The notes under the pieces: model-generated
What the model saw: the letters and a program-made list of their open reading frames with translations, nothing else
What the model was told of the DNA's origin: nothing
Database searches by the model: none
Program-made: the position numbers and the translations under genes
Assembly: GCA_013812145.1 (NCBI GenBank)
Contig: JACCTY010000136.1
Coordinates: 1 to 35,787, forward strand
Reading direction: 5' to 3'
Source of the DNA: Geodermatophilaceae bacterium
GTDB lineage: Bacteria > Actinomycetota > Actinomycetes > Mycobacteriales > Geodermatophilaceae
DNA: 35,787 bases
Shown: positions 7,620 to 11,413 of the stretch, piece after piece
How positions within the stretch are numbered: position 1 is the first letter of the stretch
Layout of the letters: every line of letters starts with the position of its first letter

Positions 7620-7642
7620 CTGTCGGTGGCGCCTGGCACCAT
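7620..7642 (+). promoter_or_regulatory. RecA-NDp/PafBC-type damage promoter of ycaQ
   Basis: CTGTCGGTG (7620-7628), an 8-base spacer and CACCAT (7637-7642) match the mycobacterial TTGTCRGTG-N8-TAnnnT element except for the first base and the first -10 base. The 9-mer is identical to the one before recA in this window. GTG at 7650 begins 7 bases after the -10, which implies a leaderless mRNA. The assignment is by motif only. Confidence 0.65.
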
Positions 7643-7649
7643 CGCTGTC

Positions 7650-8861
7650 GTGGTTTCCCTCCCGCAGCTGAGCGTCGCGGCCGCCCGTCGGGTCGCGCTC
7701 GCGGCGCAGGGGTTCACCGACGCCCAGCCCACCGGGGCCGTCGACGTGCGACATCTGCGCCGGGTCGTCGACCGGGTCGGACTGCTGCAGATCGACTCGG
7801 TCAACGTGCTGTCCCGCTCGCACTACCTGCCGGTGTTCTCCCGGCTCGGGTCGTATGACCGAGCGGCGCTCGACGGGCTGGCCTACCGCCGTCGCGAGCT
7901 GTTCGAGTACTGGGCGCACGAGGCGTCCTTCGTCCCGATCCGGCTGCACCCGCAGCTGCGGTGGCGGATGGCCCGCGCCGAGCACGAGGCCTGGGGCTCG
8001 ATGCGCAGGCTGGTCCAGGACAAGCCGGGGTACGTCGAGGACGTGCTCGCGCAGGTACGGGAGCGGGGACCGCTCAGTGCCGCCGCGGTGGCCGTGGACC
8101 GGCCGAGCCGGCCGGGAACGATGTGGAACTGGCACGACGGCAAGGTCGCGATGGAGTGGCTGTTCTTCATCGGCGCCGTCAGCGCGGCCACCCGCACACC
8201 CGGCTTCGAGCGGTTGTACGACGTCACCGAACGGGTCATTCCGGCCGCCGTCCTCGCCGCCCCAACGCCAGTGCCGGAGGACGCGCAGCGCGAGTTGGTC
8301 CGGGTCGCGGCGCGCGGGCACGGCGTGGGCACCGAGCGCGACCTGCGCGATTACTTCCGGCTTGGGGTCGAGGACTGCCGGGACCGCATTGCCGAACTCG
8401 TCGAGGAGGGGGAGCTCATCCGGGTGCAGGTGCCCGGGTGGCGGCAGCAGGCCTACCTGCATCGTGAGGCGCGGGTGCCGCGGTGGGTCCGTGCTCGGGC
8501 GCTGCTCTCGCCGTTCGACTCGGTGATCTGGGAGCGTTCCCGCACCGAGCGGCTGTTCGACTTCCGCTACCGGCTGGAGATCTACACACCGGCGCCGAAA
8601 CGTATCCACGGCTACTACGTGCTGCCGTTCCTGCTGGGTGATCGGCTGGCGGCCAGGGTGGACCTCAAGGCCGATCGGCAGGCCGGCGTCCTGCGGGCGC
8701 AAGGGGTGTACGCCGAGCCGGGCACCGATCCCGCCGAGGTGTCCGTCGAGCTGGCCGCCGAACTGCGCCTGATGGCCGATTGGCTCGGTTTGGAGCGGGT
8801 GCAGGCAGGCGAACGGGGCGATCTGGCCGAAGCGCTGCACGCGGTGCTGCGTTCGGCCTGA
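7650..8861 (+). CDS. YcaQ-family (AlkZ/AlkX-like) DNA crosslink-repair glycosylase
   Basis: This protein of about 403 residues belongs to the HTH_42/YcaQ family, whose characterised members unhook interstrand crosslinks or remove bulky alkylated bases by N-glycosidic cleavage. The family's catalytic QxD motif is visible as Gln47-Ile-Asp49 (LLQIDSVNVLSRSHYLP). The conserved region SPFDSVIWERSRTERLFDF, then YRLEIYTPAPKRIHGYYVLP, is present near the C-terminus. An upstream GTG (7626) would add eight residues. GTG at 7650 is preferred because it gives the usual N-terminus, with LSVAAARRVALAAQGF close to the start, and lies 7 bases from the -10 of a damage-type promoter. The gene stands alone between the response regulator and a convergent operon. 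YcaQ function for actinobacterial members is inferred from family knowledge. Confidence 0.88.
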   Translation: MVSLPQLSVAAARRVALAAQGFTDAQPTGAVDVRHLRRVVDRVGLLQIDSVNVLSRSHYLPVFSRLGSYDRAALDGLAYRRRELFEYWAHEASFVPIRLHPQLRWRMARAEHEAWGSMRRLVQDKPGYVEDVLAQVRERGPLSAAAVAVDRPSRPGTMWNWHDGKVAMEWLFFIGAVSAATRTPGFERLYDVTERVIPAAVLAAPTPVPEDAQRELVRVAARGHGVGTERDLRDYFRLGVEDCRDRIAELVEEGELIRVQVPGWRQQAYLHREARVPRWVRARALLSPFDSVIWERSRTERLFDFRYRLEIYTPAPKRIHGYYVLPFLLGDRLAARVDLKADRQAGVLRAQGVYAEPGTDPAEVSVELAAELRLMADWLGLERVQAGERGDLAEALHAVLRSA

Positions 8862-9079: not shown

Positions 9080-9919
9080 TCAGACCGTGGCGGCGGTGCT
9101 CGGGGTGAGGGTGATGTCCCCACTCATGGTGCGGACGCTGATCGACAACACCTCGCCGGCATCGGCGGGAGCGTCGTCCTGGTGCTCAAGGTCGGAGCGG
9201 GTCCGTCCGGACAGCGTGGACAGGTCCAGCCAGACCACCGTGCCCTGGCGAACGCCCACCCTGACGTCACCGGACATCGTGGTCACGTCGACGCTGCCGC
9301 GTTCGGCCTGCCGCACGGTGACGTCCCCGGAGGCGGTCCTGGCCAGGACTTCGCCGCCGCAGCTTCCGATGTGGACGTCGCCGGAGGCGGAGTTCGTGCG
9401 GCAGCTCCCGTCGATGCTGTCCGCGCGCACGTCGCCGGAGGCTGTCTTGCACTCGACCGAGCCGGAGACGCTGCCGAGCTGGATGTCCCCGCTGGCGCTG
9501 CTGATGTTCACGTCGCCGTCGATCTGGTCGGCGGCGACATCGCCGCTGGCGGTCGACGCCTCGATTCCGCCGAGTGATCCTCGGCAGCTGAGGTCGGCGG
9601 ATGCGGTGCGGACGTTGACGATGGACCCGATCGGCAGCCGGATGACCATCGCGAGCCGGGCGGCTGAGCCGAAGCGGCGCTCGGGGGCCTCTACGTCGAG
9701 CCGGGTTCCGTCCGCGGACAGTTCGACGCGGATGCTTTCGGCGCTGTCTTGCGCCCAGCCGCCGCGCTCGGCTTGACGCCGGGCGGTGCCACCACGGGGG
9801 ATCACCTCGACGGTGGTTTCAGTTGTCTCGGCGGCGGTGATCTCCACCTGACCGGCCGGATTGTGCACCCGCAGCGTCAGTGGCTGGGGCGTGGGGAAGG
9901 TGTGGGTCCTGGCAGACAT
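9080..9919 (-). CDS. DUF4097 family beta-strand repeat protein
   Basis: The 279-residue protein has an N-terminal beta-rich part ([19 protein letters not shown]) followed by regularly spaced repeats of the type TASGDV or SASGDI about every 17-21 residues (near residues 125, 143, 161, 178, 196 and 216), ending [11 protein letters not shown]. This is the DUF4097 solenoid seen in putative adhesin or beta-helix proteins. There is no signal peptide or membrane helix, so a cytoplasmic location is likely. Its molecular role is unknown; the fold suggests a scaffold or oligomer-forming protein. ATG at 9919 has GAGGAG seven bases upstream. It lies 54 bases behind the RHH regulator and is probably co-transcribed with it and with the 54-residue protein. 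Confidence 0.88.
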
Positions 9920-9973: not shown

Positions 9974-10486
9974 TCAGCTGCGCGCATAGCCGGTCATTCG
10001 GCGTCCGACGTGCTGCTGCGGGGTGGGTCGCCCCCCGGGCTGCACCGCCGCGGCGATGGCGCGAACCAGCCACGAGTTGACCGACAGTCCCTCGGTGGCG
10101 GCGGCGCGTTCGGCTCTGGTCTTGAGCGTCTCGGGCAGCCGCAACGTGATGCGTGCTGTGGTGAAGTCGTCCTCCTCTTCGGAGGGCGCGTCCGCGCCGG
10201 GCGGGGGAGGAGGTGGCGGCGGCACAGGCGGAGCGGCAAGGGACTCGGCGCCGGTCACCACGACTTGGGGCTCACGGCCGTGCATCCGGATCTCGACCGA
10301 TCCGCCGTCCCACGCGGTGGTCACCTCAGCGGCCAGCGCGGACAGCGCGTCAACCAGACACAACCGGGTGGACGGGTCCAACGCAGCGGCCAGCAGGCGG
10401 GCGGTCTCTCGGGTTTGCTCCGTTCCGGCCGCCGCGGCGTTGAGCAGGTCGTGGCGGAGCGCCTCGACGTACGGTGTCAGTTCCAT
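9974..10486 (-). CDS. Ribbon-helix-helix regulator with N-terminal helical domain and proline-rich linker
   Basis: This 170-residue protein has three parts. Residues 1-80 are helical ([20 protein letters not shown] and onward). [13 protein letters not shown] linker and an acidic patch (EEEDD) follow. Residues about 110-145 then form a ribbon-helix-helix domain: a beta strand ITLRLPE and two helices through [18 protein letters not shown], as in Arc/CopG/HicB-like regulators. It is predicted to bind DNA as a dimer of ribbon-helix-helix units. ATG at 10486 overlaps the first half-site of an operator with six phased TGAC half-sites, which strongly suggests autorepression of the operon it shares with the DUF4097 protein. 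Similar regulator plus DUF4097 pairs occur in actinobacteria, but the signal sensed by the N-terminal domain is unknown. Confidence 0.82.
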
Positions 10487-10552
10487 GACATCACTGTGAC
10501 ATCAAGAGTGACCTCAGTCAAGCGTCATATCGGCGTCACTGCGATGTCATGG
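10483..10552 (-). promoter_or_regulatory. Operator/promoter with six phased TGAC half-sites
   Basis: The outer arms 10483-10500 and 10535-10552 form an 18-base inverted repeat (CCATGACATC core) with 16 matches. TGAC occurs at 10486, 10497 and 10509, and its complement GTCA at 10524, 10535 and 10546, giving 11-12-base phasing about one dyad near 10517.5. On the minus strand, TTGACT (10521-10516) and CACAGT (10498-10493) are spaced 17 bases apart, and CACAGT ends 6 bases before the ATG at 10486. The half-sites therefore cover a likely leaderless promoter. Confidence 0.75.
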
Positions 10553-10648
10553 CGCGCCGCCGCGGAATCGCGGCCACGGCGTCGGTACAGTCGGCGCACC
10601 CGCCCCTTCCCCCCTTGGCGGTGCCGCGCGAGGTCCTCCGGAGTTCTG

Positions 10649-11413
10649 GTGCCCGATAACGTGCCCGACATCGTTCCGCTGCAGGTGCAGGTCATCGCCC
10701 AGACGCAGTTCACCGCTCCACCCGGCATTCCGTGGGAGACCGATTCGGACGGCGGGCAGGCGCTCGCGGAGTTCGCCGGCCGGGCCTGCTACCAGTCCTG
10801 GACCAAGCCGAATCCCGCGACCGCGACGAACGCCGGCTACCTGCGGCACATCCTCGACGTCGGTCATCTGTCCGTGCTGGAGCACGGCAACGTCACCGTC
10901 TACCTCACCGGCGTGTCGCGATCGCTGACTCACGAGCTGATCCGGCACCGGCATTTCTCCTTCAGCCAACTCTCCCAGCGATACGTCCCGGAACGGGACG
11001 CGGCGATGGTCGAGCCGGCGGTGATCGCCGCGGACCGGGAACTGCACGAGAAGTTCCTGGCCGCCACCAAGGCGGCGCAGACGGCGTACACGGAGCTGCT
11101 GGAGGGACTGGAGAAGCGCTTCGCCGATGTCGATAACGCCACCCTGCGCCGCAAGCAGGCCCGCCAAGCGGCCCGCTCCGTGCTGCCGAACGCCACCGAA
11201 ACCCGGATCGTGGTCACCGGCAACTATCGCGCCTGGCGGCATTTCGTCGCGATGCGGGCCACCGAGCACGCCGACGTCGAGATCCGTGAATGCGCCGTTG
11301 CCTGCCTGCGCGAACTTCAGCGGGTGGCCGAAAACGTGTTCGCCGACTTCGAGATCAGCGCGCTGCCCGACGGCACCGAGGTCGCCTCGAGCCCGCTCGT
11401 CGCCGAGGGCTGA
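10649..11413 (+). CDS. thyX: Flavin-dependent thymidylate synthase ThyX
   Basis: ThyX makes dTMP from dUMP using methylene-tetrahydrofolate and NADPH with an FAD cofactor. The 254-residue product has the family signature RHRxxSxxxxSxR at residues 99-111 ([13 protein letters not shown]), the upstream [20 protein letters not shown] region, and the C-terminal [14 protein letters not shown] motif that completes the dUMP/FAD site. GTG at 10649 was chosen because GGAG (10640-10643) sits five bases upstream and the length then matches the family; the frame is open much further upstream but that region is antisense to the RHH operon. A second GTG at 10661 is possible. It is followed by dapA and rnj, the order usual in actinobacteria. 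Confidence 0.95.

What the first reader, a model, noticed from the sequence alone, without database searches (positions are those of the whole stretch)
10483..10552. Six helically phased TGAC half-sites in an RHH operator
TGAC at 10486, 10497 and 10509 mirrors GTCA at 10524, 10535 and 10546 about one dyad, with 11-12-base spacing. The outer 18-base arms match at 16 positions. The array covers a TTGACT-N17-CACAGT promoter and the start codon of the RHH gene. Ribbon-helix-helix proteins bind such tandem sites cooperatively, so this looks like a tight autorepressed switch, unusually extensive for a chromosomal non-TA regulator.
Basis: partly seen in the sequence, partly recalled or inferred. Interest (0 to 1): 0.6.

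Follow-up and report, generated by a model that had tools for sequence, protein, structure and literature searches.

The report
Self-repression operator of actinobacterial RHH regulator
The repeated TGAC motifs form a row of small DNA-binding boxes, one helical turn apart, that cover the promoter and start codon of a DNA-binding protein's own gene; the arrangement is kept across hundreds of actinobacterial relatives and most likely lets the protein switch off its own operon.

Summary
The array is real and not chance. All six sites fall in one 11-12 bp register; 20,000 shuffles never exceeded three. Its natural reading is not six half-sites about one dyad. It is a row of 8-bp palindromic boxes, TGRYRYCA, on the RHH strand at -7, -18 and -30 relative to the ATG, with weaker ones at -41, -52 and -63. 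The last box ends on the A of the ATG, and the boxes enclose a leaderless-type promoter, TTGACT-N17-CACAGT-N6-ATG. Comparative tests strongly support autorepression. In 69 of 74 divergent homologs at least two of three core boxes are in register (0.06 expected). A gene-blind search of 297 genomes for three phased boxes found 36 sites, of which 33 abut an RHH start codon. The window's genome has one two-box site, this one. Beta-strand residue 114 predicts the box sequence (T/S with TGA, N with TGG). In six homologs without boxes at their own ATG, the operator sits upstream, in at least five over the ATG of a small ORF. The RHH-DUF4097-ABC neighbourhood was already published; I found no paper describing the operator. 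Binding, repression, cooperativity and signal are untested. The array is typical for the family, not unusually extensive.

The parts
10486..10493 (-). Core box C, TGATGTCA, offset -7; last A is the A of the RHH ATG
   Evidence: in 74 divergent homologs 81% have a box (at most 1 mismatch) at this offset
10497..10504 (-). Core box B, TGATGTCA, offset -18
   Evidence: 80% of 74 homologs at -18, 10% at -19
10509..10516 (-). Core box A, TGAGGTCA (1 mismatch to TGRYRYCA), offset -30, next to the -35 hexamer
   Evidence: 54% of homologs at -29 and 28% at -30
10520..10527 (-). Weak box at -41, TGACGCTT (2 mismatches), overlaps the -35 hexamer; this slot is empty in almost all homologs
10531..10538 (-). 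Upstream box at -52, TGACGCCG (1 mismatch)
   Evidence: homolog peak at -50 to -52
10542..10549 (-). Upstream box at -63, TGACATCG (1 mismatch)
   Evidence: homolog peak at -60 to -63
10516..10521 (-). -35 hexamer TTGACT
   Evidence: TTG(A/C) conserved at -35 to -32
10493..10498 (-). -10 hexamer CACAGT, six bases before ATG, so a leaderless transcript is predicted
   Evidence: Homolog consensus CA(T/C)A(A/G)T, built from the end of box B, the spacer and the first T of box C
9974..10486 (-). RHH regulator, 170 aa: N-terminal helical/beta-hairpin domain, proline-rich linker, C-terminal HicB-type RHH domain (strand R112-I-T114-L-R116)
   Evidence: Pfam HicB 24.3 bits, cut-off 21; PDB profile hits (weak) VapB26, Mnt, AtaR, Arc; model
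9080..9919 (-). DUF4097/Toastrack protein, second gene of the operon
   Evidence: Pfam PF13349 E 2e-22; found directly downstream in 80 of 80 named relatives
10649..11413 (+). Divergent thyX (FAD-dependent thymidylate synthase); shared intergenic region, co-regulation not shown
   Evidence: TIGR02170; divergent thyX seen only in 9 of the 80 named loci

Best explanation
The feature is the autoregulatory operator of an actinobacterial RHH repressor. RHH dimers recognise 8-bp palindromic boxes, TGRYRYCA, through their paired beta-strands. Three core boxes, one helical turn apart (-7, -18, -29/-30), enclose the -35 and -10 elements and the start of a leaderless transcript. Bound dimers on one face of the DNA would exclude RNA polymerase and shut down the RHH-DUF4097 operon (with a DrrA-type ABC exporter in most relatives). 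Extra boxes upstream (-52, -63 in the window) would extend the bound array. Shown by sequence comparison: box unit, phasing, position on the promoter, near-exclusive location before RHH genes, covariation with strand residue 114. Inferred: dimer binding, repression rather than activation, cooperativity, the leaderless start. Unknown: the inducing signal; the N-terminal domain or the DUF4097 partner (possibly membrane or envelope stress) are candidates.
For: Six sites in one register, never more than 3 in 20,000 shuffles. In 74 homologs below 80% identity, boxes peak at -7, -18, -29/-30, skip -40 where the -35 hexamer lies, and resume at -50/-51, -61/-62 and -71/-72; 69 of 74 have at least two of three core boxes, against 0.06 expected. 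Gene-blind search for three phased boxes in 297 genomes: 36 sites in 33 genomes, one genome with the reversed control pattern; all 33 genomes carry the RHH family, itself found in 102 of 297; 33 of 36 sites abut an RHH ATG. In the window's genome the two-box pattern occurs once, here; in four close relatives every hit precedes an RHH copy. Residue 114 is the protein column that best predicts half-site base 3 (z 17.5, next 7.4): N114 has mostly TGG in 76 of 78 proteins, T114 in 2 of 89. In three genomes with both paralog types the boxes differ as expected. In 6 of 8 homologs lacking boxes at their own ATG, the operator lies 140-217 bp upstream, in at least 5 over the ATG of a 44-46 aa ORF.
Against: No binding or expression data. 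Covariation is partly phylogenetic: only 4 independent residue switches on the best tree and 1 on well-supported branches. The window's own box A and the upstream boxes are imperfect. The -10 hexamer is weak, and the leaderless start is predicted, not mapped. The predicted model leaves the RHH strand unresolved and Foldseek hits are weak.
Confidence: 0.86

Rival explanations
1. The RHH protein binds the boxes but mainly activates the operon, or switches between repression and activation with a ligand or with DUF4097.
For: Boxes also lie upstream of the -35 element in many homologs, a position compatible with activation.
Against: The most conserved boxes cover -35 to +1, including the -10 element and the start codon, which favours blocking polymerase.
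Confidence: 0.07
2. Another regulator of the cell recognises the boxes; the RHH gene is only its target.
For: TGACGTCA resembles sites of unrelated regulators (own knowledge).
Against: Boxes occur almost only next to RHH-family genes; box sequence tracks strand residue 114 of the adjacent RHH protein, also between paralogs in one genome.
Confidence: 0.04
3. The divergent array mainly controls thyX, or controls both directions.
For: In the window the array lies between RHH and thyX and extends to -63.
Against: Divergent thyX is present in only 9 of the 80 named loci while the boxes are general. A TACAGT element conserved in close relatives lies at 10587-10592, outside the boxes.
Confidence: 0.06
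4. It is the operator of a HicB-type antitoxin in a toxin-antitoxin module.
For: Pfam HicB match; database name 'toxin-antitoxin system HicB family antitoxin'.
Against: The partner gene is DUF4097, not a HicA or other toxin, in 80 of 80 named loci and in the window.
Confidence: 0.03
5. Chance repeats in a G+C-rich intergenic region.
For: None.
Confidence: 0.005

Closest known systems
Arc repressor (phage P22) and its operator
   Same: RHH fold; the profile aligns strand R112-I-T114-L-R116 with Arc Q-F-N-L-R. Arc contacts DNA with Q9, N11 and R13 and binds subsites about 11 bp apart (own knowledge; Raumann 1994 cited in PMC6514445).
   Different: Sequence match is weak (E 0.075). Here there is an extra N-terminal domain, 8-bp TGRYRYCA boxes, and overlap with a leaderless start codon.
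MetJ repressor and met boxes
   Same: Tandem 8-bp palindromic boxes, AGACGTCT against TGACGTCA; self-regulation (own knowledge).
   Different: Met boxes repeat every 8 bp; here every 11-12 bp. MetJ uses S-adenosylmethionine; no such site was looked for here.
HicB, VapB, ParD and AtaR-type RHH antitoxins
   Same: RHH DNA-binding domain, autoregulation of own operon (HicB Pfam match; VapB26 and AtaR).
   Different: RHH domain is C-terminal with no toxin partner; the partner is DUF4097.
RHH-Toastrack(DUF4097)-ABC operons of Actinobacteria (PMC11237479)
   Same: Same gene neighbourhood: Toastrack gene, ABC ATPase and permease with an RHH regulator. The window belongs here.
   Different: The main-text passages read here mention the operon in one sentence and no operator; in the window the ABC genes are absent.

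Membership tests
RHH (MetJ/Arc superfamily) DNA-binding protein | Sequence match to an RHH family | tested here: met
   Pfam HicB 24.3 bits against cut-off 21
RHH (MetJ/Arc superfamily) DNA-binding protein | Dimeric strand-helix-helix fold | tested here: inconclusive
   Monomer model shows the two helices, strand unresolved; top Foldseek hits are RHH proteins but E 0.5-1.5
RHH (MetJ/Arc superfamily) DNA-binding protein | Beta-strand residues set DNA specificity | tested here: met
   Residue 114 best predicts half-site base 3; R112 and R116 invariant; statistical only
RHH autorepressor with tandem operator | Repeated phased sites over its own promoter | tested here: met
RHH autorepressor with tandem operator | Protein binds and represses in cells | not testable with these tools
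   Needs EMSA, footprint and reporter
RHH-Toastrack-ABC operon (PMC11237479) | RHH gene followed by DUF4097 gene | tested here: met
   Window and 80 of 80 named loci
RHH-Toastrack-ABC operon (PMC11237479) | ABC ATPase and permease in the operon | tested here: not met
   Nearest long ORF beyond DUF4097 in the window is a convergent one, 7626-8861 +; an ABC ATPase was found in 59 of 80 relatives' loci. The window holds the reduced two-gene form
HicAB toxin-antitoxin | Adjacent HicA (or other) toxin gene | tested here: not met
   Partner is DUF4097

The most novel reading that the evidence does not exclude
A widespread family of actinobacterial autorepressors has a one-residue recognition code (T/S at the strand centre reads TGA, N reads TGG). 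The code keeps paralogs in one cell apart, and the proteins act on leaderless promoters whose start codon is part of the operator, with DUF4097 as the partner that links repression to envelope stress and, in most relatives, to an ABC exporter.
Probability: 0.4. Interest if true: 0.6.

Novelty: new member of a known kind. Interest (0 to 1): 0.42.

Why it matters
These proteins are annotated as 'HicB family antitoxin' or 'hypothetical'. The operator indicates that they are local autorepressors of DUF4097 (and often ABC exporter) operons, found in about a third of the sampled genomes of the class, and in many Streptomyces. It supplies an exact binding site, a predicted transcript start and a one-residue specificity code, all directly testable, and a handle for finding what DUF4097 systems respond to.

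Tried and rejected
Single large dyad of six half-sites: rejected, since homologs keep 8-bp boxes and not the overall mirror symmetry. Chance: rejected. Toxin-antitoxin module: no toxin partner. Large regulon: the two-box pattern gives one site in the window's genome and few sites away from RHH genes in 30 others; three three-box sites do not abut an RHH start (before an MFS transporter, before a P450, and about 520 bp upstream of an RHH gene). Literature searches for the box with Streptomyces, DUF4097 with RHH or Streptomyces, HicB with thyX, and RHH with leaderless operators found no description of this operator; only openly licensed papers are held. Structure comparison of the single-chain model was uninformative for the N-terminal domain.

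Full report
Observation. Scoring TGAC and GTCA as the two halves of one 8-bp box puts all six in a single 11/12-bp register; 20,000 dinucleotide shuffles never exceeded three.

What the unit is. On the RHH strand the sites read TGATGTCA (-7), TGATGTCA (-18), TGAGGTCA (-30), TGACGCTT (-41), TGACGCCG (-52) and TGACATCG (-63), counted from the A of the ATG at 10486. Close relatives read TTGACTGACGTCA-N4-TGATGTCATAGTGACGTCATGG, and distant ones TTGC-TGGCGCCA-N3-TGGTGCCA-N3-TGGCGTCATGG (Streptomyces) or TTGAC-TGACACCA-N3-TGGTGTCA (Microbacteriaceae, Cellulomonas). The common unit is the palindrome TGRYRYCA. The apparent single dyad in the window arises because the left boxes keep their left half and the right boxes their right half.

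Conservation. I collected 213 distinct homologs from several searches. Of these, 212 start with ATG. In 74 representatives below 80% identity, boxes with at most one mismatch fall at -7 (81%), -18 (80%) and -29/-30 (54% and 28%), skip -40, and reappear at -50/-51, -61/-62 and -71/-72. At least two of the three core boxes are present in 69 of 74, against a mean of 0.06 in shuffled upstream regions. The skipped slot is where the -35 hexamer lies (TTG at -35 to -33). The -10 hexamer, CA(T/C)A(A/G)T at -12 to -7, is made from the end of box B, the 3-bp spacer and the first base of box C. With six bases between it and the ATG, the transcript is predicted to be leaderless; this is inference.

Exceptions that support the rule. 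Eight of 213 homologs lack two boxes at their own ATG. In six of them (L007, L010, L014, L038, L046, L053; Geodermatophilaceae or a Frankiales MAG where named) an operator with at least two good boxes lies 140-217 bp upstream; in five it overlaps the ATG of a 44-46 aa ORF that precedes the RHH gene, and in L010 the small frame was not resolved. The operator therefore follows the promoter and the first start codon of the operon. L112 and L269 remain without a recognisable operator.

Specificity to the RHH gene. A gene-blind search of 297 genomes of the class for three exactly phased boxes found 36 sites in 33 genomes, and one genome with the reversed control. All 33 genomes carry the family, which is present in 102 of 297. 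By coordinates and reading, 33 of the 36 sites end on the start codon of an RHH gene. In the window's 3.08-Mb genome the two-box pattern occurs once, at this operator; in four close relatives every hit precedes an RHH copy. In 30 further genomes sites elsewhere are few.

Who binds. If the RHH protein reads the boxes, its strand should covary with them. Among variable protein columns, residue 114, the centre of the strand R112-I-T114-L-R116, best predicts half-site base 3 (z 17.5; next 7.4), while R112 and R116 never vary, as the flanking TG/CA hardly do. Over all distinct proteins, N114 goes with mostly TGG in 76 of 78, T114 in 2 of 89 and S114 in 4 of 33. Genomes G002, G038 and G048 hold both types as paralogs, each with the matching boxes. 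The statistics are limited by ancestry: the tree needs only four changes of N114, one on strongly supported branches. By alignment, residues 112, 114 and 116 correspond to Arc Q9, N11 and R13, known DNA-contacting residues (own knowledge). RHH proteins insert this two-stranded sheet into the major groove (PMC6514445).

Gene context. DUF4097 follows the RHH gene in all 80 named loci, and a DrrA-like ABC ATPase is found in 59 of them. The operon type was noted in one sentence by a study of phage-shock partners (PMC11237479). The window has the two-gene form without ABC genes and a divergent thyX, an arrangement limited to a few related lineages. Records name the protein 'HicB family antitoxin' or 'hypothetical'; no toxin gene is adjacent.

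Mechanism. Most likely, RHH dimers occupy boxes one turn apart on one face of the DNA and cover the -35, the -10 and the transcription start, repressing their own operon. Occupancy of the boxes, repression, cooperativity and the releasing signal are inferred and need the experiments listed.

Verdict. Real, conserved and well explained: a previously undescribed (as far as the openly licensed literature shows) operator of a known kind, with a testable recognition code.

Noticed in passing
L007, L014, L038, L046, L053 (small ORFs starting 140-217 bp upstream of RHH): A 44-46 aa leader ORF sits between the operator and the RHH gene; in L046 and L014 its start (MTFDPYVEELRSQLG, MTHDPYVEELRSQLG) resembles the RHH N-terminus.
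   Followed up: partly
L151:2001-2033 (G067:C10:97429-97458): A three-box operator ends 2 bp before the ATG of an MFS-transporter-like ORF, in a genome whose RHH gene has its own copy elsewhere; possible second target.
   Followed up: partly
L152:2001-2030 (G324:C4:485420-485449): A three-box site about 44 bp upstream of a cytochrome P450-like gene; possible extra target or chance.
   Followed up: no
L282:1501-1519 (G038:C1:285441): Two exact boxes just before an uncharacterised ORF (MSRDDVNEMRGVPGRH...), not an RHH gene.
   Followed up: no
L275:1501-1519 (G304:C1:12890-12908): A second pair of boxes between RHH and DUF4097, close to the DUF4097 start; possible internal operator.
   Followed up: no
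window 10587-10592 (+): TACAGT, a likely thyX -10 element, is conserved in close relatives (L035, L036, L041) and lies outside the boxes.
   Followed up: partly
window 9974-10486 (-), residues 1-80: N-terminal domain (two helices and a beta hairpin) has only a sub-threshold match to Trypsin-co-occurring domain 2 and no solved relative found; candidate sensor domain.
   Followed up: partly
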